From Jaapia argillacea MUCL 33604 (taxonomy: Eukaryota > Basidiomycota > Agaricomycetes > Jaapiales > Jaapiaceae): 64,000 nt of DNA. Location: contig KL197718.1 of assembly GCA_000697665.1 (NCBI GenBank), positions 813,099 to 877,098 of the forward strand, given 5' to 3'. Below, one piece after another: positions 1,184 to 64,000 of this stretch; the first letter of the stretch is position 1, and every line of letters starts with the position of its first letter. Made by a program: the position numbers and the translations under genes. Under the pieces are notes generated by a model. It ran no database searches. It saw only the letters and a program-made list of their open reading frames with translations, and was not told where the DNA came from.

Positions 1184-2265
1184 TTAATACAATTCGGCCA
1201 TAATCTTCAACCTTACAACAATGTCGCCCATAGTAGGGCGCGTGAAGGGCTGTGGTGAGAAGCACTGAATGAGCAAGTCCCACATCTCGGTGCCTAGGCC
1301 AGATCGATCGATCAAAGCTAACTCGCCGTCTCCGAGTATGACACGGCTATAATAATTGTTGGGCGAGAAGGGTGGTTTACCCGTGAGAACCTACAAAAGG
1401 AGGCGTATTTGATGAAAAGGGAAAGGACAGAGGCAGAGAAAATGCTCACCTGATACATTACTCCGGCAAAACCAAAGACATCGTCAGGTCTAGTGGGAGC
1501 TGTGAAGGCGTCGTTGTTGCCCGAAAACACTTCGGTAGCTCTGAACATCCAGGAGGAGGGGATTTGGCCCGGGAAGATTTCATTTAGCGTAGCGCTGACT
1601 CGATAGTCGGTGATCACAATATTGTGATCATCTTTGACCATGACATTCCCCTGTGAATGCTCTGAGCTCATGGCCTTGAAGGTATATCATCACGGACAAG
1701 ATACCAACCGGAACGATGTGCCCGTGTGGACCAAGAAGGTGGTGGATGTTTTCAACGGCTTGCGCAAACTTGATTAACTAAAACAATCATCAACAAGTAC
1801 AACGTATTCGGAGCACCAGAAACTCACCATCTTCATCTTCTCGTTGTTGGGTGCGCCGTTCAGATAAGCACAGATATGCCCATTTTGGTAAAAGGGAAGG
1901 GTGACGTCGAGTATTGCGCGTTCATCGCAAGAAACGGAGTTGATGGGTGAGATGTAGGATGAAATCGACCCGGCGTTCTTGGCTCGCTGAAAATAAGCGC
2001 GGGCGTCAAAGGAGTGAGTCAAAGGACTATGACGTCACGAGAAATTGCAAACCTCAAATAGCCTCATGCCGGATTCGACAATAATCTCAGCAGGCAGTCG
2101 CATCTTCTTTCGCACCATCTGACCATATTGACGGAGGAGCTAAGGATCATACCAACCACCGCAACACGACAAGGGCTTGCTCACCTGGCGTCCTCCTTCA
2201 GTCACGAGATAGAGGTTTGCGTGCTCACCTACGGCGAATGGAAAATCGTGGGTCTTGGCTTCCAT
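1184..2265 (-). CDS. Pseudokinase-like protein A
   Basis: Six exons read through without a break on the minus strand: 2265-2185, 2139-2053, 1986-1828, 1777-1709, 1650-1450 and 1390-1184, giving 267 residues. Every intron is phase 0. The fold follows a protein kinase: strand GEHANLYLV, hinge PFYQNGHICAYL, catalytic-loop exon of exactly 23 codons ending HGHIVP, a GNVMV segment, an APE-like region, and a C-lobe with CFSPQPFTRPTM. The HRD aspartate and the DFG motif are replaced (HGH, ITDYR), so it should not phosphorylate and is best called a pseudokinase. The start is uncertain: codons upstream of 2265 continue to a TTTAG acceptor, and relatives have an extra short first exon I could not place here. 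Confidence 0.72.
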
Positions 2266-3794
2266 TGTATCCTAAAGGTGGTGCAAATTCAGGCTGGGTA
2301 TATCTGGGAGTCGGAGAAGGGTAGTTCACTGTTGAGGAATGCAAGGGAGACACCGCTGAAGATCTCTAACACAACCCGGCTTACTGAACGATCGGTTGAC
2401 GTTGTGGGCTGGTGGTAGTTGAAGGCCGATGGCGTTTTGATCAGTGAGGGCTGGAAGGCGTGATTCTTATATGGCGGAGAAGAAAGCCGCGTGTCGATTT
2501 TTAACCCCTCGACGAGTTCCCACGTGCCCTAGAGCGGTAGTCTGCAGCTGAGCACGAACAAACAATGACAAGCGTCAGTGGGATAGAATGGGAAGGTTAT
2601 GACTTGGTGATGATCCGGTGGGGTAGTCTCGAAGGAGAGGAAAACGCACAGGTTTCGCACAAAGGCCAGACCGGCCACAAGTTCCACCACCTCCGCATCA
2701 ATCAAACGAAGCAGCCTGCCTCCGTCGGACAGTCAGCAGCCAAAACGAAACCCATAGAAAGCAAAGAAATGAGTGGATATTGCACAGCTGGGAGCGGCCG
2801 TTGCGGCTCTCGGCAGTTAGACAGACCGTTGCTGGCTAGTGTGGTATCTAGATGTTTTTGCAGTACCGGGATAGAGCGAGATGGTGAAACAAGAGTGGGG
2901 TTAAACAGGCAATCCATCGAATGCGACGCGATTCTAGCATTCAGAAAGCCATCAGGGTTGAATTGGAGGTGGTTTGGAGCAAGATGTGAGGGCTCAGCGG
3001 GGGTGGGGCAAGGTGAACCCAGCCTGAAGCCCTTTAAGGGATATCGATGGATTACGATCAGCCGCCCAAGTTCGGATCTTGTATCTCCATGGATGTGAAG
3101 CCTTCTTCAGAGGCGATAGAAAGGGTGATTCCAGCCTATTGCTGACAGTCGCCTGAGTCCAACAGACCTTGTTGTTTGCAACGCGAACAAGGTCAACACG
3201 GCGCGACACGACACGATCACATGACTAGCTGTCCGTCACACTGTCACACTCGCCCCGCTTCCCAACATCATGTATCAGAAATTATTCGAATAATGTGAGC
3301 ACATAGTCCATATACTACGGGGTATACACATGAGAGCGACGATTGCATACGAAGAGGTATTACGAGACAGAAATAGCTCAACCAAGAGAGACAAGTTAAC
3401 CAAATACGACTAATACTGAGGTGGGGTATGAAATGACTGGGACGAAGGCACATCAAAGGAGAAACCAAAACGAGTAGATAGTTATCACCGTTGTTCCGGA
3501 ACAACGCGATATAAAGGACCACCCAGACCCTGGCTGGTAAGGTTCGCGATCTAGAGACGATGAATAACGCTAGTCGCGGGAACGAGGGGTTAAGAGATGA
3601 GAGGGAGGCATATGAGTGAGATCATGATGAGGTCTTGAGGTGAAGTTTGGGGCGAGGCTGACTGCGGCGCGAACAGCATTGTGAAGGTTGAGATAACTCG
3701 TGCCAAGTACACAGGTCGCACCCTTTGAACCCCAAAAGTTTAAAAATCACGGATGAAAGCGCAGTCACACGTGAAATAACGCACCCTTGAGTCA
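2266..3794. other. Intergenic, no gene recognised
   Basis: The stretch includes a 177-codon plus-strand open frame at 2565-3098, but it has no recognisable domain, no splice context and unremarkable composition, so I do not call it a gene. The rest shows only short frames. It should contain the promoter of pseudokinase A and the 3' flank of the next kinase-like locus. Confidence 0.4.
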
Positions 3795-4905
3795 TCAATT
3801 ATTGACCATTCGAGAAGCAGGCAACGCAGTCAGCCTGGCGGTGACTTCACCCGCGCTAGGTCGAGCGGAAGGGTTGCCGGGGGACCAGCAATCCGTAAGC
3901 AACCCCCATATGTCATCGGTCAAGTTCCGACGCTCCATGAGTTTCAGTTCTTCGAGGTTCTTGAACATCCGACGACCATAATTGTGGGGATAAAAGGGGG
4001 GCGTTCCCGTAAGGATCTAGCAGAAATAAATGATCTCGACGACCATCAGGCGAATAAGGAGGATGGTGCACACCTCGTATATCACACTCCCAAACCCCGC
4101 ACGATCTCCATTTATGGTATGGACGGGAGGAGAATCTTCTTCACGAGGTAATTCTTCATGTGCTTTGTATCTCCACGAGTTTGGCAGGCGATACCGACCG
4201 CTGGCCTCGCAGATCAACATTTGCAAGGTCGAGTGAATTCGAAGAGGATCCTGATGTCTAGGTCATCGGTGACCAAAAAATTCTCCTACACGGAAGGGGG
4301 AATCAGATGGAGTCATGGGGACCAGGAGAGGACGACGTACCGGCTTGATATTTCCATGAGCGCCGAATGCGCCGTGAACAGCGTCGAGGGCCTTCGAGCA
4401 TTTCAACAACTAAGACAATCATAAATATGGGAGCTACTCATCAGTGGTAGTAAAATACGCACCATTCTTCGCTGCTCATCAACCGGCTTGTCCTTCAAAT
4501 AAGTCCGGATATTTCCATTCCTGAAGTGAGGTATAGTCAACTCCAACGATCCATGGGGGTTGAACGCAATGACGGCAGGAACGAGGTAGGCCGCAGCCAC
4601 AGCATTCGAAGGGTCGGCGATATTAACCACCTAGTCATGGTCATTGCGGGAGCGAAGAAACGTAATGGCCAAGACTTACCTGTTGTAGTGTGGTCCTAAA
4701 ATTGGTGTCCACGAGGATCCCTTCCGGCAACGGTACAACTTTCGTCATCATCATCTACAGCAGAAATGCCGCATATCGGGATGTTGAGGGCGGTGTAATG
4801 TTCGGCGAGGAAATTTTCACTCACAACACAGCCAGTGTCTTCGTTCGTGAACACAGGCGTAGTTTCACCTGTCTGCAGTGGGTGCATACGCTCACCGTCT
4901 TGATA
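3795..4905 (-). pseudogene. Pseudokinase-like gene B, frame broken
   Basis: A close relative of its neighbours on the same strand. Exons can be followed at about 4900-4825, 4754-4680, 4630-4463, 4409-4341, 4285-4074 and 4016-3795. The catalytic-loop exon is again 23 codons and ends HGNIKP; the C-lobe keeps CWSPGNPSARPS. The exon 4285-4074 is 212 bp instead of the 216 bp of copy C and changes frame in its middle (around 4235-4265): ENFLVTDDL is in one frame and RIHSTLQ in another. A one-base indel is the simplest reading, so the locus is probably a recent pseudogene; a sequencing or assembly error is the alternative. The DFG position is also lost. The 5' end is not resolved. Confidence 0.6.
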
Positions 4906-36450: not shown

Positions 36451-36527
36451 GAGAATACTTTAGGGTCGATGAAAACTGGTGAACTTCAAATGCACAATCG
36501 ACGGGAACTGATCGATGACCGCACACA

Positions 36528-39500
36528 TCACAGAGACTGCATGACCTGCTGCATCGTGGGCCTTTCATTTGGTTCCTGTTTCCAGCACTTCTCCATCAGT
36601 GCCCATATCTTGTTGCTGATACGCTTGTCCGTGTTTCTCGCACGCGACGGCCTTCGACCCATTTTCACGTGAGACACAATCTGGACATCCAAAAGACCCT
36701 TTGTGAAGGGGGTCAGGCCCGTCAAAACCTAGGTAAATGTCGTGAGGGTGAGAGATGGTGACCCGAACGCGTTTATACGACCTACCTCAAAAAACACGAT
36801 GCCCAGGGCATAGACATCCGACTGCAACGAACATGGGAGCATAACGCCACCCGTAGGCTCGAGCTCGCTTTCCGAATCAGCGTCATCCAACTCGCGGTGC
36901 AGCTCGGGTGCCATGTAGCAACTCGATCCGGCCGCGAGCCATGTCAGATACGTTGCGTCGTCTCCCTGTACTTTTAATATCCCGAAATCGCAGATTCGAG
37001 CGCACTTATGCTCATCTACAAGGATATTGTTCTACACATAGAATTTAACGTAAATTCGAGAGGGTCACAGGGGGGGACTGACCGATTTGAGATCTCCATG
37101 AACGACAGGCCTGGAGAGAGAGTGAAGGTAAGTCATTCCACTTGCGATGGATTGGATCTAGCCGACCAATCAAAAGAGGAAGTCAGAAATACGGAGGGAA
37201 CGAACCAAAGACATCCGATTGGCCATTGGATCCGTAGCGAGATGGTCCATGATGGTTCCATAGGAGCAAAAAGGAGATATGAGGGCTATTCTGCCCTCAA
37301 ATTCAGCATACCCTAGGTATGGCAGAACGTTGGGATGGGAAAGGGAAGACCATGCTTTGGACTCGCGAATAATACGCTATAATTGAATGGCGATGACTCT
37401 GAATAGTGGTCAATAAGCCGTGCGATCCTACCGTACCTGGCCAACTTGTGCCTGTGAGATATTGATTCCTTCAGGTCGGAGGTCACTGCGAAATACTTTG
37501 ATAGCCACCTGTCAGATGGGTGGTAAGCATCGCAAATGATGGATGCAGAGAGCCGGAGCTAGTAGTACGCACAATACGGGATTTTGAAATACGGGATTTT
37601 GAGTTAGGGGATTGGTAGACTCCACGGTAAACATCACTAAGTACACCACTTCCTATGGCCAGTTGACCGCTAATTTCCACTAGTCCCGTAAGATCCTGGG
37701 ACCTCTCATTAGGAGGGTCACAACTATGAACGACATCAACCTCAACCTCGTAGGATATATCTCCATCAAGCGGGGAGACATCGTCCGACACTCCATTCCC
37801 TTGAGCATCTGGACTGGGCCCATTGGTGTAGCTTGAAGCGGCAACTGAAGGCAAACAATTCGCGGAGTCCTTGTTCCAGCAGTGGGGATGGGCATTTAAG
37901 ATAGAATCAGTGACACATCTACGGAAAATCAGACTATTCTCACAGACGGCGAGTGTTTCTCTACGGGAGTAAAGGTGGTGAACGCATCCTGGGCATCTTC
38001 GGGTCCTCCAAGAGGAGGGACCTTGGTGTTGTCACTCTCCTCATTAAAAGGTACGGTAAGCGCTGGAGGGGAGGCGGGTGTGGGCGTCGGGTCTGTCAGA
38101 TCCTGGGAAAATAGAATCAGCGAGACATGAGTGAATATAAAACTGTTCTCACAGGCGGAGGGCGTGTCTCTGCAGGAGTAAAGGTAATGAGTGCATCTTC
38201 GGGTCCTTCATGAGGAGGGATCTCGGTATTGTCACTCTCGTCATTCAAAGGTTCGGTAAGCACTGGAGGGGAGGCGGGTATGGATGACGGGTCTGTCAGA
38301 TCCTAGAGAAATAGAATCAGCGAGACTTGAGTAAAGACCAGACTGCTCTCACAGGCGGAGGGTGTGTTTCTGCAGGAGTAAAGTTAGTGAATTCATCCTG
38401 AACATTGTCGGGTCTTCCATAAGGGATCTCGGTGTTGTCACTCTCGTCATTCAAAGGTATGGTAAGCACTGGGGGCGCGGTGGTGGGAGCAGCGGCGATG
38501 GGGTCGGCTCTGAGACCATGATTATCGCCCTCACTGAAAAACGGCTCTATCACGGCTATATTCACTGGGGAAAGCCACACTTACACAGTAACGGAAAGAA
38601 ACTCCTGTGAATATGTATCTTTTAGTCCCGGGGCGATGTGCTGTTGAACGAATGGAGCAATGCTTGAAGCTGTCGGAAAGAGGGCGGATCCACAGTCGCT
38701 AAGAGACAACCTTGAGTCCTCAAGCGCTTTCGAGAAGAAGAAAATTTCCAATAAACATTAGTAGATACCTTTGAAGGAGCTGAGTCAATCTCAACAAAGA
38801 CGAAATCCTTGAGCAGTCCGGTAGTAGACAGTCCCGGACACCAACTAAGATTGAGCTGGCAAACCGATCGATCCCGGTGATGTCCATCACGATTCGCTGG
38901 TGGGAAATATCGACATCGTGCCGGTTGATATCCATGTCTTCAATAAGACGCATAGCAGCATCACACATCTTACCAACTAATGAGAACAGACGTTCACGCT
39001 CTCGGTTCTTCCAAAATGTCGACAAGCCTAGTATCCCTCCTAGGTACCTGATAGCGATAAACTTGGGATAGTCGGGATGATCACTACAGTGGCGATGAAA
39101 TGAGGAAGCGGCGTGCTAGACAAAAGACAACGGGGTACCCACTCGGTGATCCTCGCCAACAATGTTTCAGTGACACCGCGAACCTGACCATCCAGCAAGC
39201 CCAATTCACGGGGATAGCAGTGCTCCACTTCGCAAGTAACCTCATTGTCCAACACACAGAACGCTGCGAATTGCATCTTCCAAACCCATTCCAGGGGAGA
39301 TTCTTCCTCGTTTTGACTTTCCCACCCCAGCAGGTGAGCCTGAGTTTTGCTTTGATTGTTGTTTGTCGCTGGTACCGTGACAAGCCGGCGAAGTAGCTGT
39401 CGCGCACCTGGGTAGGCAGTGCACAGTGTTACAATGCATTCGAATGTTTGAAGTCTGGTGCTCGGTGGGTTTCGCCTGCAGCGCGCAACATTCAAAACCA

Positions 39501-39951
39501 CATGATGGCCTTAACTTTTGCCTTGTTGATAACTAGCGAAAACTCACCAATGGGCATAATCAATGAGCTTTCTGCAATCCGTTTGCAGACATTTCATCCA
39601 GAGAGCTTCAAGCTTCAGTTCGTTGTCAGCCCCATCTGAGTCGCGAAGTGTAGCATGGAGGTCGTCCAGCTTTGATTCGATGGCTTCCCTTTGTTTTCCG
39701 AGAATCTTCTCGATGCGTTGGGTGGCTTTGTGCGGTCCCGCTCCCAACCCATACGCAATTCGATTTACCACCACTTCTACTCTCTTTCCCAGCAAACAAG
39801 ACAAGTGCTCGATGACTCCTCCTAGGCCATGAGAGGTGTGTACAACAGCCAGCTCTGTGTGTCGAGCAGAGGCTAACGTTAATAGCCTGTAGGAGCCTGG
39901 GGACTCCGGTATGACAGTAAGTCGCCGATGGTCGTCAACTTCAAGACTCAT
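36528..39951 (-). CDS. Large modular kinase J: helical N-region, repeat-exon linker, kinase
   Basis: The start is MSLEVDDHRRL at 39951. N-terminal exons 39951-39548, 39475-39143 and 39047-38769 encode a helix-rich region (GVIEHLSCLLGK, TFECIVTLCTAYPGARQLLR, LFSLVGKMCDAA); a further exon near 38720-38610 links to exon 38555-38353. Two duplicated acidic, Pro-rich exons follow (38302-38153 and 38102-37944), then a linker and the kinase: IGSGVLSDVYRG, a catalytic-loop exon ending HGDLKS, exon 37031-36786 with NNILVDEHKC and CDFG, MAPELH, and last exon 36728-36528 with ERPTM. HGD and DFG are intact. The paralogue at the right edge has the same order, which supports one gene. I could not settle the phase between the fourth and fifth exons. 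The N-region has no domain I can name; function as a sensor is inference. Confidence 0.6.
37944..38555 (-). repeat. Tandemly duplicated phase-0 exons in kinase J
   Basis: Three exon copies with period of about 200 bp: a longer founder copy 38555-38353 and two that start DLTDP (38302-38153, 50 codons; 38102-37944, 53 codons). Each contains ASPP or APP, DESDNT (or EESDNT) and ends PPP or SPS before GTGAGA. Introns between them also match (TAGAATCAG and CTGTTCTCAC). The unit thus includes one exon and one intron. Confidence 0.85.
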
Positions 39952-40395
39952 CGCCGATTTCTTGCCGTTGCTAAGTGACAGGAATTCGTGGATGGAGTTG
40001 ATTTTGGGCTGCAGTTTGGCTGCAGTAATAGAGAGGCATACCGCAGCGTGGTTACACCGCCCAACCTCGTGTTGTCAACGAGCTGTGTCTTCGTTTTGGA
40101 TATGGAAACGGCACTCGCTGCAATGCTCTGTAAATGAGCATGTGCAGTTCTCCAGCTACTTTCCCACCTTCACCACGGAGTCGCTCGTCAGGCGTCAAGC
40201 CAAGCGAAGGCCTTTGAAACGAATCCAAGCTCTACACTGCCTTCTTGATCAACCGCCAGATGACTGACTCGGAGGTCCATACTGGTTGCCCCACCAGTAG
40301 AGGGCCACCGATCAACACTGACATCGGTGGAGTCCGGATCTCGTTCTATCTCCAAGCGCTTTTCCTAGGTGAATGAACAACCGTGATGTCTTCCC

Positions 40396-41408
40396 GTGAA
40401 GTTTACTCTTATGCTTATTAGGTCTCCTCTCCGTGAGATCAGACTCACAGGATCAAATTGCGGACTCACTACACACTCTACTGGCCACCAACACGGCCAC
40501 CACATTCATCGGTTTACTTTTGGGATTGAAGGCACAGCCAGAGATAATGCTTTATCTGCTCTCCCTTCCCTGGGTCACGACTCTCCTATCTCTCTCTGCT
40601 CATCAACGCATACAAGGGAACACCCGACTCCTCCAGCTATTCTCCCTCGCCCAATCATTCATCTTCTTCACTTTCGCTTTCGCCCTTCTTTCTCATGCGG
40701 ATACTTTTGGTAGTTCCCCGGAATGCAATCACCATGCCCCCTTGTCTTGTTCCGACTATTTACAGCCCTGAGTATCGGAGGTAGAGTCTTTGGTTGGATA
40801 GTGGCCAGCACAGTGGCATTGGTATATGCGTTCATGTCAACCAAGGAGTACCTCCCTCCGGCGACGAGGACAATGGACCAGTGGATGCGGAAAATCAGAG
40901 TCAAAGCACAACAACCCGAACCAGACCAGGTGTGGCCGGTGTTGACCTTGAAGAACTTCACCCGCCCTTTGATACGAAGTCGAATCCTAGTAACAATCAG
41001 TGGGACCAAACTTTCGTTTCGTCCAGCCAGTGAGTTAGCCTGCTTGCTCTTTCGAGGAATCCCACTAACAGCGTCTACCGACTCTGCTAGAAAATGCATA
41101 GCCATGACACCGGGATATCAGATTCCCTCATTGTACTCATGTTTGTCATCATTCTCTCTTGGGCCCTCGCAGTCTCGAACACCGAGCTACTCATAAGACG
41201 GAACCATTTCAACGCTGCTGATGCACCATCGTCGTGGCAATTCGGACAGGTGCTGTGTTATAAATCAACTACTGTTCCGTGCTGGTTGTCGAGTTGAGTA
41301 TGTTCCCAGGTTCTCCCGATGCTGTTGGTTGTCCTTCCGTTTGTGAGCACGATCATAGCTTACAAGAACCATGGCATTTGGAGCCCTAGAATTCGCTATT
41401 TGGGGTAG
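40396..41408 (+). CDS. Multi-pass membrane protein, frame not fully resolved
   Basis: Several hydrophobic blocks follow one another: FIGLLLGL, EIMLYLLSLPWVTTLL, FSLAQSFIFFTFAFALL, then FRLFTALSIGG and FGWIVASTVALVYAFM, later DSLIVLMFVIILSWALAV with NTELLIRRNHF and WQFGQ, and a last exon 41310-41408 reading VLPMLLVVLPFVSTIIAY. The NTELLIRWNHF-WQFGQ block and the hydrophobic end are typical of an Agaricomycete membrane protein family of unknown role. The reading frame changes near 40730 and near 40850 without obvious introns, so this may be a pseudogene, or short introns remain unplaced. It is divergent from kinase J, with starts about 450 bp apart. Confidence 0.5.
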
Positions 41409-42039
41409 TGGGTCTTAGATCGAGGTGTTCTGCGGACAGGGGCTCGTCTCTAATCACGGATTTTGGGGTTCGTGCACATACTCAACTTCTTTTTATCATC
41501 ATTTCTCCTGTCCATTCGCTCTTTCACCACTTTCCACCCTTGGCCTGGACACTCTTCACCTGTTGTTGTTGTCTGGTTTTGGAGCGGCTCCTACTGAAGG
41601 TTGGTTCACGGCTCTTCTCAAACAGGGACTGGGTTCTTGAACGTGACGATCTTTGGTGCGTCGCCGTTGTTGGATGTACCACCTTGCCCTCAGGCATATA
41701 TGCACGAGACTTGGACCGTAATAGCAGTTTGAACACGACATGCTACCATTACTTACATGACCATTTAATGGTTCGGATATTCGACGTTCTTCTGTAGTAC
41801 TTGCTGTATTTGCTGCTGATCTTGTTGTGCCAATGTGGCTGGTCGGCTGTTTTCGCCAAAGGTTTATTTGTCCTGCAATTTGGCTGCGATGCAGGCCTCG
41901 TCGACGGCACTGCGAATCATGAATCGACGAGAAGGCAATTGACAGAAATGAATTGTGTTGCCATGAGGAACATCCATGCTGTTACCTGTACTAGCTGTCC
42001 ATCGGGACTGGAGCAACACTGAGAATTTCCTTAGCATCA
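41409..42039. other. Intergenic, no gene recognised
   Basis: A plus-strand frame at 41408-41797 lacks motifs. No repeats seen. Confidence 0.35.
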
Positions 42040-60969: not shown

Positions 60970-63900
60970 CTAGAGTCCATGAGTACGTATCTGCGGCATA
61001 GGAAACAGAATAGAGGCGATCTTAGACTTAGACAACGTGTCAACAACACCGGTCATAAGTGGTCGATCTTGCGGATTTTGGACCCAACAATGGGACATCA
61101 TGTCCCACCAAGTATCAGGAATTGGGGGGTATTCCTCGCGGATTGGCCGGTCGCCCTTCACAACAATGGTAATGACTCGAAACTCCTCCTTCTTATAGAA
61201 GTAAGGAGCCTTGCCGGTGATCACCTAGTGGGGAACGTATATCAAATTCGAAAATCCAACCCACGCTTCTGAATTAAACGACAACTAAGTGGACGCACCT
61301 CTAAGGCAGTGGTTGCAAAACTGTAGACGTCACCTTCCTTCGTAAGCGCCTGTGCGACTTCTGCATTGTGCCCCGGTTCCAGGATTTCCGGTGCCAAATA
61401 TCGATATGTCGCGGAAAACTCTGTTGTGTAACCCCTGTGGCCGATGACTCTCGATCGACCAATGTCACACAACCGAGCCACGCCCCCATCGATGAGGATG
61501 TTGTGCTAGATAACGCAAAGCGTCAGAGGGAAGGAGGAGACATCGATATATGGGGAGCAATCCTATACTGGTTTGAGATCTCCATGAATAGCATCTCTCT
61601 CATGCAGATACGCTAACCCTTTAGCAATGTCTCTGACCTGTGAAATGTGTTCATCATGACAGCGACAGTGGCGAATGCAGGGGACCGACCATCTCATATC
61701 TATTCACTTCTGGGTGGCAGGCAAGATAACCCATGATTGGACCTGAGGCGCAATGCTTTGATACGATTGCGGGGCAAGGAAGCGTATCTGGAACGATTGC
61801 CGTCCCCAGGAACGGAACGATGTTGGGGTGCTCGAGGGAACTCCATAGATGAGCCTCGCGATTCATCATCTACTTTATGTTAGTTGAAGTGACAGTGCGA
61901 AGGAGCTTTGACTTACCTGGGTCATCTTTTGCAGCTCTTGAGGATATATGTGAACACCTCGGAAGACTTTGATGGCAACCTAAGACCGATCAACTCCCGT
62001 GAACATCCGTATCAGGAGGTACAGATCACCACCAGACGCTTACCGCCATTTCCATGCTTCTCCCTGCCTGAATAAAGGAATAGTTGCCCTTGTAGATTTC
62101 AGAGAAATCTCCTGCTGCGAAGGCGTGCTGCTCGGTTTTGTGGACGAATCCGGTCAGATCCTGGGAGATAGAATCAGCGATACATCAGTGGAGATCAGAC
62201 AGCTCTTACATGCGACGGGTTTCCTTCCCTGAACCTTAAGTCAGGACCTGCGGCTGTGCGGACGAATCCAGTCAGATCCTGGTGAAATAGAATCAGGGAG
62301 ATTCGAGCGAAAAGCAGACTGTTCTCACAGGCGGAGGGCGTATCTCTACAGAAGAGGTAGTGAATTCATCCTGAACATTGTCGGGTCCTCCACGGGGAAG
62401 GATCTCAGTGTTATCGCTCTCGTCATCAAAAGGCGCGGTAAGCACCAGAGGGGAGGCGGGTGTGGGCGTTGGGTCTGTGAGATCCTGGGAAAATAGAATC
62501 AGCGAGACATGACTGAATATCAGATTGTTCTCACAGGCGGGGGGAGTGTCTCTGCAAGGGAAAAAGTGGTGAATTCACCCTGAACATTATCGGGTCCTCC
62601 ACGAGGAGGGATCTCGGCGTTGTCACTCTCGTCATCAGAAGGTGCGGTAAGTGGTGGAGGGGAGGCGGGTATGGGCGTCGGGTCTGTCAGATCCTGAGAA
62701 AATAAAATCAGCGAGACATGACTGAAGATCAGACTATTCTCACAGGCGGGGGGCGTGTCTTTGCAGGGGTGACGTCATTCTGAACATTGTCGGGTCCTCC
62801 ATGGGGAGGGAGCTCGGCGTTGTCACTCTCGTCATCAGAAGGTGCAGTAAGTGATGGAGGGGAGGCGGATATGGGCGTCGGGTCAGACACAGGGCCGTGA
62901 TTCTCGTTGTCCTCACTGTGAAGGTTCCCTGTCGCCTCGGTCTCGGAGGACGCGGTTGGAGCAGAAATCGGGATAGTCTCGGCTCTGAGACCATCGTTTT
63001 CGCCCTCGCTGAGAAGCTGCTCTATCACCACTATATTCGCTGAGGAAGGCCACACTTACCCAAGAAGGGTCATAAACACCTGTGCATATGTAGCTTTTGA
63101 TCCCGGAGCAATTGATTGTTGGACCGATGGAGCGATGCTGGAAGCTGTTGGAAAGAGAGCGGATCCGCAGTCGCTAGGAGACAACCACCTTGAGTCTCAA
63201 GCGCTCTCGAGAACGACAAAATTCCAATAAATGTAATTAAATACCTTTGAAGAAGCTGAGTCAATTTCAACAAAGACGAGATCCTCGGGCAGTCTGGCAG
63301 TAGAAAGTCCCGAACACCAGCTAAGATTGAGCTGGCAAATCGATCGATCCCGCTGATGTCCATCACGATTCGTTGGTGGGAAATATCGACATCGTGCCGG
63401 TTGATATCCATGTCTTCAATAAGATGCACAGCAGCATCACACATCTTACCAACTAATGAGAACAGACGTCCGCTGTCTCGGTTCTTCCAAAATGCCGACA
63501 AGCCTAGTATCCCTCCTAGGTACCTGATAGCGGTAAACTTGGGATAGTTGGAAGGGTCACTACAGTGACGATGAGAAGCGGCGGGCTTGACAAAAGACAA
63601 TGTGATGCTCACTCGGTGATCCTCGCCAACAACGTTTCAGAGATACCGCGAACCTGACCATCCAGCAAGCCCAATTCGCGGGGATAACAGTGCTCCACTT
63701 CGCGGGCAACCTCATTTTCCGACACACAGAACGCTGCGAATTGCATCGTCCAAACCCATTCCAGGGGAGATTCTTCCTCGCTTTGACTTTCCCACCCCAA
63801 CGGGTGAGCTTGAGCTTTGCTTTGATTATTGTTTGTCGCTGGTACTGTGACAAGCCGGCGAAGTAGCTGTCGTGCACCTGGGTAGGCAGTGCACAGTGTT

Positions 63901-64000
63901 ACAATGCATTCGAATGTTTGAAGTCTCGTGGTAGGTGGGTTTCGCCTGCAGCGTGACACATTCAAAACACCACATAATGGCTTCAACTTTTGCCGTGCTG
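60970..64000 (-). CDS. Large modular kinase K, paralogue of J (5' end off the window)
   Basis: Exons are well defined: 61224-60970, 61505-61299, 61637-61569 (23 codons), 61869-61690, 61979-61917, 62160-62044, 62278-62210, then three repeat exons to about 63036, and helical N-terminal exons to the window edge. Landmarks: DLTGFVHKTEQ entry, AAGDFSEIYKGNY loop, VAIKVFRG lysine, IVSKHCASGPIMGYL hinge, HGDLKP then HNILI, CDIG in place of DFG (Asp kept), YLAPEILEP and CWVQNPQDRPLM. It should be active. The N-terminal region matches kinase J (TFECIVTLCTAYPGARQLLR, LFSLVGKMCDAA), and its missing first exon should begin right of position 64000. All introns here are phase 0. Confidence 0.72.
62210..63036 (-). 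repeat. Tandem phase-0 exons in kinase K
   Basis: Exon 62278-62210 (DLTGFVRTAAG, 23 codons) and exons 62484-62329 (52 codons), 62693-62535 (53 codons) and a longer founder ending at 62744 follow each other with a period near 205 bp. The middle two start DLTDPTP, and all three linker exons contain DESDN and a GGPDNVQ core and end PPP before GTGAGA. The introns between also match (AAAATAGAATCAG, CTCACAGGCGG). This mirrors kinase J, but the copies within K resemble each other more than those of J. Confidence 0.85.

What the first reader, a model, noticed from the sequence alone, without database searches (positions are those of the whole stretch)
62210..63036. Tandemly duplicated exon modules starting with Asp-Leu-Thr feed a kinase domain
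In kinase K the linker exons and the kinase entry exon all start GATCTGAC(N) or GATCTCAC, are phase 0 at both ends, and repeat with their introns about every 205 bp. Copies can therefore be added, lost or skipped without breaking the frame. A linker that evolves by duplicating whole exons in front of a kinase is unusual for a fungus and would change receptor geometry between strains.
Basis: partly seen in the sequence, partly recalled or inferred. Interest (0 to 1): 0.85.

Follow-up and report, generated by a model that had tools for sequence, protein, structure and literature searches.

The report
Tandem exon repeats before fungal kinase
A mushroom-type fungus has a kinase gene whose flexible linker was lengthened by copying a small exon together with its intron; this is real and neatly in frame, but the process is already known from another fungus and nothing shows that it makes a variable receptor.

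Summary
On the minus strand a 14-exon model (899 aa, 13 GT..AG introns) reads as one frame; exons 6-9 begin GATCT[G/C]AC (Asp-Leu-Thr) in phase 0, and TRF finds 3.0 copies of a 209-bp unit. The genome is Jaapia argillacea, an agaricomycete. Paralogue K2 in the window has its own three-unit array; its deposited protein is spliced as predicted through unit 3. Each unit is an exon plus a ~50-nt intron homologous to the pre-kinase intron. Copies start with DLT because, I infer, the duplicated block took in that intron's 3' splice site and the first codons of the kinase-entry exon (motif DLTG). Exon 8 is a second chimera, kinase entry joined to another kinase's first exon. The linker is acidic and predicted disordered; no transmembrane segment was seen, so 'receptor geometry' is unsupported. 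Skipping and strain variation could not be tested. Strain-variable intron-containing repeats are published for Cryptococcus CNN00420, so this is a new member of a known kind. Interesting extra: three copies of the N-terminal half are joined to three different 3' halves, broken within about 80 nt of the same intron's donor.

The parts
63613..63945 (-). Gene K exon 2 (N-terminal module; exon 1 lies beyond the window, 64019-64416 in window-extended coordinates)
   Evidence: Exon chain with GT..AG introns, single open frame
63245..63559 (-). Gene K exon 3 (N-terminal module)
   Evidence: its product is 92% and 86% identical at the two paralogous loci
63060..63173 (-). Gene K exon 4 (end of N-terminal module)
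62744..63008 (-). Gene K exon 5: unique linker start plus first repeat unit (unit 1, 62744-62884; no DLT start)
62694..62743 (-). Intron 5, 50 nt, homologous to the pre-kinase intron
   Evidence: 45/50 identical to intron 6
62535..62693 (-). Exon 6 = repeat unit 2, starts GATCTGAC (DLTDPTPIPASP), 159 nt, phase 0-0
62485..62534 (-). Intron 6, 50 nt
   Evidence: 46/50 identical to K2 intron 6
62329..62484 (-). Exon 7 = repeat unit 3, starts GATCTCAC (DLTDPTPTPASP), 156 nt, phase 0-0
62279..62328 (-). Intron 7, 50 nt
62210..62278 (-). Exon 8: chimera of 28 nt of kinase-entry exon (DLTGFVRTA) and the 3' end of a K4-type first exon (..REGNPSH), phase 0-0
   Evidence: local alignments; 0 of 2000 shuffles of exon 8 reach either score
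62161..62209 (-). Intron 8, 49 nt, the pre-kinase intron proper
   Evidence: 39/49 identical to intron 1 of kinase K4
62044..62160 (-). Exon 9: kinase-entry exon, starts GATCTGACCGG (DLTGFVHKTEQ..)
   Evidence: D/N-L-T/S-G lead in 6 of 14 relatives examined
60970..61979 (-). Exons 10-14 with introns: rest of the kinase domain to the stop codon
   Evidence: Pfam PF07714 8.1e-38
38353..38533 (-). Paralogue K2 exon 5 containing its repeat unit 1
   Evidence: protein P0001
38153..38302 (-). K2 repeat unit 2, starts GATCTGAC
   Evidence: spliced this way in P0001
37944..38102 (-). K2 repeat unit 3, starts GATCTGAC
   Evidence: P0001 agrees to residues HSP near its end
37895..37898 (-). K2 junction: homology to the K array ends at 37898; sequence shared with the region before kinase K3 and with a region at 42 kb begins at 37895

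Best explanation
Gene K encodes an intracellular protein with three parts: a helical N-terminal module of unknown fold; an acidic, Pro/Ser/Thr-rich disordered linker; and a protein kinase domain of a kind expanded in mushroom fungi. The linker was lengthened by tandem duplication of a ~200-bp block: linker-exon sequence, the 50-nt pre-kinase intron with its branch point and 3' splice site, and the first ~9 nt (Asp-Leu-Thr) of the kinase-entry exon. Each copy is therefore a self-contained phase-0 exon that begins DLT because it carries a fossil of the kinase's own DLTG lead. A later joining to a K4-type kinase gene, within that gene's first exon, left chimeric exon 8. The most likely working is constitutive splicing of all units, with unit number setting the length of the tether (and the number of Ser/Thr-Pro sites) between the N-module and the kinase. 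Shown: anatomy, open frame, homology of exons and introns, chimeric exon 8, junctions. Inferred: the order of events, constitutive splicing, the intracellular location, the tether function.
For: One open frame across 14 exons with 13 GT..AG introns. The same splicing rules reproduce exactly the deposited K4 protein P0037 and the K2 protein P0001 up to the end of its unit 3. The introns after the units and the K4 pre-kinase intron are 49-50 nt (the broken K2 intron 7 was compared as a 52-nt slice) and 65-92% identical pairwise. A 22-base probe of the array-intron 3' end, up to 2 mismatches, finds 7 sites in 43.7 Mb: 5 array introns (3 of K, 2 of K2) and 2 others with 2 mismatches, one of them without the AG; reversed control 0. 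A related probe found only K intron 8 and K4 intron 1. A D/N-L-T/S-G lead was found in 6 of 14 related kinases, including two of Amanita and one of Serendipita. All 7 unit coding segments have lengths divisible by three (141-159 nt; I set the start of the three first units at a codon boundary), and retained introns give stops in 4 of 4. Selection on the rest: N-module dN/dS 0.29-0.44 (three pairs), kinase versus K4 0.40. The linker is 57% P/S/T/D/E; in the K2 model it is coil with block-mean pLDDT 27-41.
Against: No transcript was seen, so splicing in K is predicted. No near-identical deposited protein for K appeared in two searches (both score only the candidates sharing most words and limit candidate length to 0.55-1.75 of the query), so K may be unannotated or annotated in short pieces. 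K's kinase has DIG for DFG and GDF for GGF in the glycine loop relative to K4, so it could be decaying. Linker units show loose constraint (pairwise dN/dS 0.27-1.45, few sites), so their sequence, or even their length, may hardly matter. For 7 of 14 relatives no lead motif was found by the simple rule used. The deposited K2 protein leaves the predicted frame after unit 3, by my reading through a doubtful intron of about 29 nt.
Confidence: 0.82

Rival explanations
1. The array is a regulated cassette: exons 6-8 are alternatively skipped, or vary in number between strains, to tune linker length.
For: All three exons are phase 0-0 and divisible by three, so up to eight in-frame linkers are possible. 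Strict position orthology of units between K and K2 is disfavoured, AU p 0.024, SH p 0.061, so units may have been exchanged or re-amplified. Strain-variable intron-containing repeats exist in Cryptococcus (PMC2395259, section 10).
Against: Both paralogues have three units. Units within K are only 80-89% identical in exon sequence, so there is no sign of recent expansion. No transcripts or second strain were available.
Confidence: 0.15
2. The repeats multiply as introner-like elements, that is, an intron that invades new sites.
For: Several similar ~50-nt introns lie in one gene.
Against: The exon is repeated with the intron (TRF units of 200 and 209 bp). The intron 3' end occurs in K and K2 apart from two 2-mismatch sites. 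The 614-bp array finds only three loci.
Confidence: 0.02
3. The K array is a decaying by-product of segmental duplication: a non-functional or poorly expressed gene with neutral repeats.
For: No matching deposited protein; DIG and GDF changes; loose dN/dS in the units; the sister locus on contig C1 breaks off after one unit.
Against: 899 codons without a stop, all 13 introns canonical; N-module and kinase dN/dS 0.29-0.44.
Confidence: 0.2

Closest known systems
Cryptococcus neoformans CNN00420 intron-containing repeat expansion (Sharpton et al. 2008, PMC2395259; passages and section 10 read)
   Same: A basidiomycete gene with tandem repeats, each holding exon ends and a full-length intron; identical or near-identical introns in series; canonical GT|AG splicing.
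   Different: There the repeat is ~107 nt, ESTs support splicing and strains differ in copy number. Here the unit is 200-209 nt, units are 80-89% identical within K, splicing is predicted, strains are untested, the unit start appears captured from a kinase-entry exon, and the array lies before a kinase.
Intron gain by tandem genomic duplication (review PMC3443670, passages read; Drosophila cases PMC2891723, passages read)
   Same: New exon-intron structure arises from a local tandem duplication within a gene.
   Different: The model described there turns a duplicated AGGT inside exon sequence into new splice sites. Here a ready-made intron with all its signals was duplicated along with exon sequence, giving new exons and new introns.
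Expanded Agaricomycete protein kinases (FslK lineage, PMC3937382; abstract and section 9 read)
   Same: A protein kinase domain (Pfam PK_Tyr_Ser-Thr) with many related copies in one mushroom-fungus genome (151 matching stretches, 138 of 355 candidates scored).
   Different: Clade membership of K was not tested; the abstract and section 9 mention neither this N-module nor a repeat linker (the rest of the paper was not read).

Membership tests
Intron-containing tandem repeat expansion (CNN00420 type) | Tandem repeats each containing coding sequence and a complete intron | tested here: met
   TRF unit 209 bp x 3.0; exon 156-159 nt plus intron 50 nt
Intron-containing tandem repeat expansion (CNN00420 type) | Canonical splice sites in each copy | tested here: met
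   Introns 5-8 of K all GT..AG; K2 intron 7 has lost its usual 3' end
Intron-containing tandem repeat expansion (CNN00420 type) | Splicing supported by transcripts | not testable with these tools
   No RNA data; only a deposited protein model of the paralogue K2
Intron-containing tandem repeat expansion (CNN00420 type) | Copy number differs between strains or orthologues | not testable with these tools
   One assembly held; K and K2 in it both have three units
Introner-like elements | Near-identical introns dispersed in many genes | tested here: not met
   The array-intron 3' end occurs in 5 array introns plus 2 two-mismatch sites in 43.7 Mb
Protein kinase of the PK_Tyr_Ser-Thr (Pfam PF07714) family | Profile match above the curated cut-off | tested here: met
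   130.6 bits against cut-off 23.1
Protein kinase of the PK_Tyr_Ser-Thr (Pfam PF07714) family | Catalytic Lys, HxD and DFG (motif list recalled) | tested here: inconclusive
   VAIK and HGDLKPHN present; DFG reads DIG and glycine-loop GGF reads GDF
FslK lineage (PMC3937382) | Phylogenetic placement in the FslK clade | not tested
   No tree with FslK reference sequences was made
Receptor kinase | Transmembrane segment or signal peptide | tested here: not met
   Best 19-aa hydropathy window 1.41, inside the kinase; no dedicated TM or signal-peptide predictor available

The most novel reading that the evidence does not exclude
The pre-kinase intron and its duplicated copies act as a phase-0 docking zone that lets one N-terminal half (N-module plus linker) be re-joined to different 3' halves, kinases above all. 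Three copies of this half in the genome have three different 3' partners, and their breakpoints fall about 9, 46 and 78-82 nt from the donor of the same kind of intron. Each extra DLT exon would be another frame-neutral landing site, making kinase swapping easy.
Probability: 0.2. Interest if true: 0.55.

Novelty: new member of a known kind. Interest (0 to 1): 0.35.

Why it matters
It gives a readable case, in a mushroom-type fungus, of how a protein linker grows by whole exons. The footprint (DLT at each exon start) shows where the duplicated block ended and why every new exon was in frame from the start. It also hints at how a signalling kinase family can gain new N-terminal partners by breaks near one intron. 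It does not change a major view, since the duplication mechanism is established.

Tried and rejected
Receptor reading: rejected for lack of a hydrophobic segment. Introner-like elements: rejected. DLT as a functional repeat motif of its own: set aside, because it is explained as the kinase DLTG lead carried along. Genome-wide use of [CT]AGGATCTNACNGG as a kinase-entry signature: weak. There were 12 sites against 6 for the reversed control; on reading the 12, only the 5 on contig C10 belonged to these kinase genes (4 kinase entries and K exon 8), the others did not look like kinases, and one could be read for only 7 residues. Exon 8 as a simple tandem duplication inside K: disfavoured, because exon 7 ends like a linker unit and not like a K4-type first exon; a joining of two genes fits better, but this is not proven. 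Unit trees are short and weakly supported. In one search, independent arrays (K units with the C1 unit against K2 units) are not rejected (AU p 0.39), K2 units as one clade are not rejected (0.42), K units alone as one clade are borderline (0.060), and position orthology is rejected by AU (0.024) but not by SH (0.061). So I cannot say whether the array predates the paralogue split and was then homogenised, or grew separately. Favouring an older array: unit-2 introns of K and K2 are 46/50 identical, and the two genes share the junction GATCTGACAGACCC. The AlphaFold2 model of K2 is poor outside the kinase (mean pLDDT 52.6, 12 sequences), so no fold search was made. I make no claim that such an array before a kinase is unpublished: the literature searches were only, and apart from the four papers named in Closest known systems only listings were seen.

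Full report
WHAT IS THERE. The finding lies in a gene on the minus strand that I call K. Chaining exons by GT..AG introns from the window into its contiguous continuation (L004) gives 14 exons, a single frame of 899 amino acids and a stop. Exons 5 to 8 span 62210-63008; the kinase-entry exon is 62044-62160. Exons 6, 7, 8 and 9 begin GATCTGACA, GATCTCACA, GATCTGACT and GATCTGACC in phase 0. TRF gives a 209-bp unit, 3.0 copies, 83% matches at 62271-62884, and 2.0 copies of a 200-bp unit at 37993-38397; these are the only two rows with a period above 50 among the 9 TRF rows for the window. The units are exon plus intron: exons of 159 and 156 nt, introns of 50 nt. The first unit is the tail of a longer exon and lacks the DLT start.

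ORGANISM AND DEPOSITED ANNOTATION. The homologue search returned P0001, hypothetical protein JAAARDRAFT_206847 of Jaapia argillacea MUCL 33604, on a contig of 1,260,779 bases, the length of the window's contig C10. P0157, from the same strain, lies on a contig of 3,433,974 bases, the length of C1. P0001 is not K (56% identity over 97%) but the paralogue K2 at window 36.5-40 kb. My K2 exons 1-7 translate to the same residues as P0001 up to '..TPVEKHSP' near the end of unit 3; beyond that the deposited model leaves, by my reading, through a very short intron that I find doubtful. My K4 model equals the deposited P0037 exactly. So the splicing rules used for K agree with two deposited models, although I saw no transcript evidence. 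Two searches showed no near-identical deposited protein for K itself; both score only the candidates sharing most words, within a length range.

WHY THE MODULES START WITH DLT. Related kinases carry DLTG or NLTG at the start of the kinase: P0038 (Jaapia, the K3 gene), P0041 (a JGI contig), P0043 and P0046 (Amanita), P0040 (Serendipita, NLTG); K4 (P0037) has DLSG. That is 6 of the 14 proteins examined; the window reported for P0001 also ends in DLTG, and for 7 no lead was found by the simple rule. The consensus of the 12-sequence alignment also reads DLTG there. In K4 the intron before DLSG is 49 nt and is homologous to the K introns (65-73% to introns 5-7, 80% to intron 8). A tandem duplication running from inside the linker exon, through the pre-kinase intron and its 3' splice site, to about 9 nt into the kinase-entry exon produces a new exon that begins DLT and continues as linker, in phase 0 on both sides. 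The expected unit length, about 150 + 50 nt, matches 200-209. The shared junction GATCTGACAGACCC in K unit 2 and K2 units 2 and 3 fits this. I infer the event order; the homologies are computed.

EXON 8. It is 69 nt: its first 28 nt match the kinase-entry exon and its last 37 nt match the end of K4's first exon, and 0 of 2000 shuffles of exon 8 reached either score. K and K4 align at 83% over 1,344 bp from inside exon 8 to the edge of the compared stretch beyond the stop. K thus looks like an array-bearing gene joined, in frame, into the first exon of a K4-type kinase gene.

THREE COPIES, THREE PARTNERS. A 110-residue stretch of the N-module matches at three places in the genome (3 of 3 candidates scored), as part of duplicated segments of about 3 kb at 85-92%. 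K continues into a K4-type kinase. In K2, homology to the array ends at 37898, and sequence shared with the region before kinase K3 and with a region at 42 kb begins at 37895; the kinase that follows is not K4-like and by eye resembles the one entering at 43.9 kb. In the C1 copy, homology ends 7-9 nt into the intron after unit 1, and about 27 nt further on begins a sequence copied from, or to, a Ser/Gly-rich stretch (read by eye) about 1 kb away. Measured from the donor of the corresponding intron, the breaks are at about 9, 46 and 78-82 nt. This is three events only; I cannot show that the intron causes the breaks.

EVOLUTION OF THE UNITS. Exon identities among the 7 units are 75-91%, and identities among the 8 introns 65-92%, so exon and intron parts diverge alike. 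Pairwise dN/dS in units ranges 0.27-1.45 with few sites, while the N-module gives 0.29-0.44 and K versus K4 kinase 0.40. All 7 unit coding segments have lengths divisible by three although five lengths occur; I set the starts of the three first units at a codon boundary. In tree tests on exon plus intron, AU p is 0.77 for the free tree, 0.39 for independent arrays, 0.42 for K2 units as one clade, 0.060 for K units alone as a clade and 0.024 for position orthology; SH gives 0.061 for the last. This allows either separate growth or homogenisation within each gene. Both genes now have three units.

FUNCTION. The linker (217 aa between N-module and kinase) is 57% Pro, Ser, Thr, Asp and Glu against 29% in the rest, with 4% Lys/Arg. 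Units in K hold 2-3 Ser/Thr-Pro sites each. In the AlphaFold2 model of K2, residues 381-620 have block means of 27-41 and are coil, while the kinase blocks are mostly 60-96 with dips to 46-55. The simplest function is a flexible tether, possibly phosphorylated. The N-module is predicted helical with low confidence, has no Pfam match up to E 1 and, in the searched collection, is seen only in this species; that search needs shared 5-residue words, so distant relatives could be missed. No transmembrane segment is seen, so there is no support for a receptor.

ALTERNATIVES. Introner-like multiplication is contradicted by the genome-wide probe (5 array introns, 2 other two-mismatch sites, 0 in the reversed control). 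Regulated skipping and strain variation remain possible and untested. Decay of K is possible given DIG for DFG and GDF for GGF, but the reading frame and dN/dS argue for constraint at least until recently.

KNOWN OR NEW. Sharpton et al. 2008 (PMC2395259; passages and section 10 read) describe in Cryptococcus CNN00420 repeats of ~107 nt that include exon ends and a full intron, EST-supported, with different copy numbers among strains. Tandem genomic duplication is a listed mechanism of intron gain (PMC3443670, passages; PMC2891723, passages). A fungal kinase lineage expanded in Agaricomycetes has been described (PMC3937382, abstract and section 9); I did not test whether K belongs to it. The finding is therefore a new member of a known kind, with an informative footprint and an interesting but unproven partner-swapping side.

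Noticed in passing
window 36500-39951 (-): Paralogue K2 (JAAARDRAFT_206847) with its own three-unit array, joined to a different kinase; break at 37898/37895.
   Followed up: yes
L005 about 4300 (contig C1): Third copy of the N-module with one linker unit, broken 7-9 nt into the following intron and followed by a Ser/Gly-rich sequence (read by eye).
   Followed up: partly
L004 about 3640-4760 and L047 6076-7321: Two further related kinases (K3, P0038; K4, P0037) close to the window on the same contig.
   Followed up: partly
window 61299-61505 (-) and 62044-62160 (-): K kinase has DIG for DFG and GDF for GGF in the glycine loop compared with K4; it may be altered in activity.
   Followed up: no
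window about 40000-41700 and L004 about 1500-3230: The duplicated segment upstream of the N-module seems to hold a membrane-protein gene on the opposite strand (read by eye only); it is shared, to differing extents, by all three loci.
   Followed up: no
window 43914 (-): Another CAG|GATCTTACCGG kinase entry (DLTGRVTIEGQLTIGGGAFSDVYRG) that resembles the kinase joined to K2.
   Followed up: no
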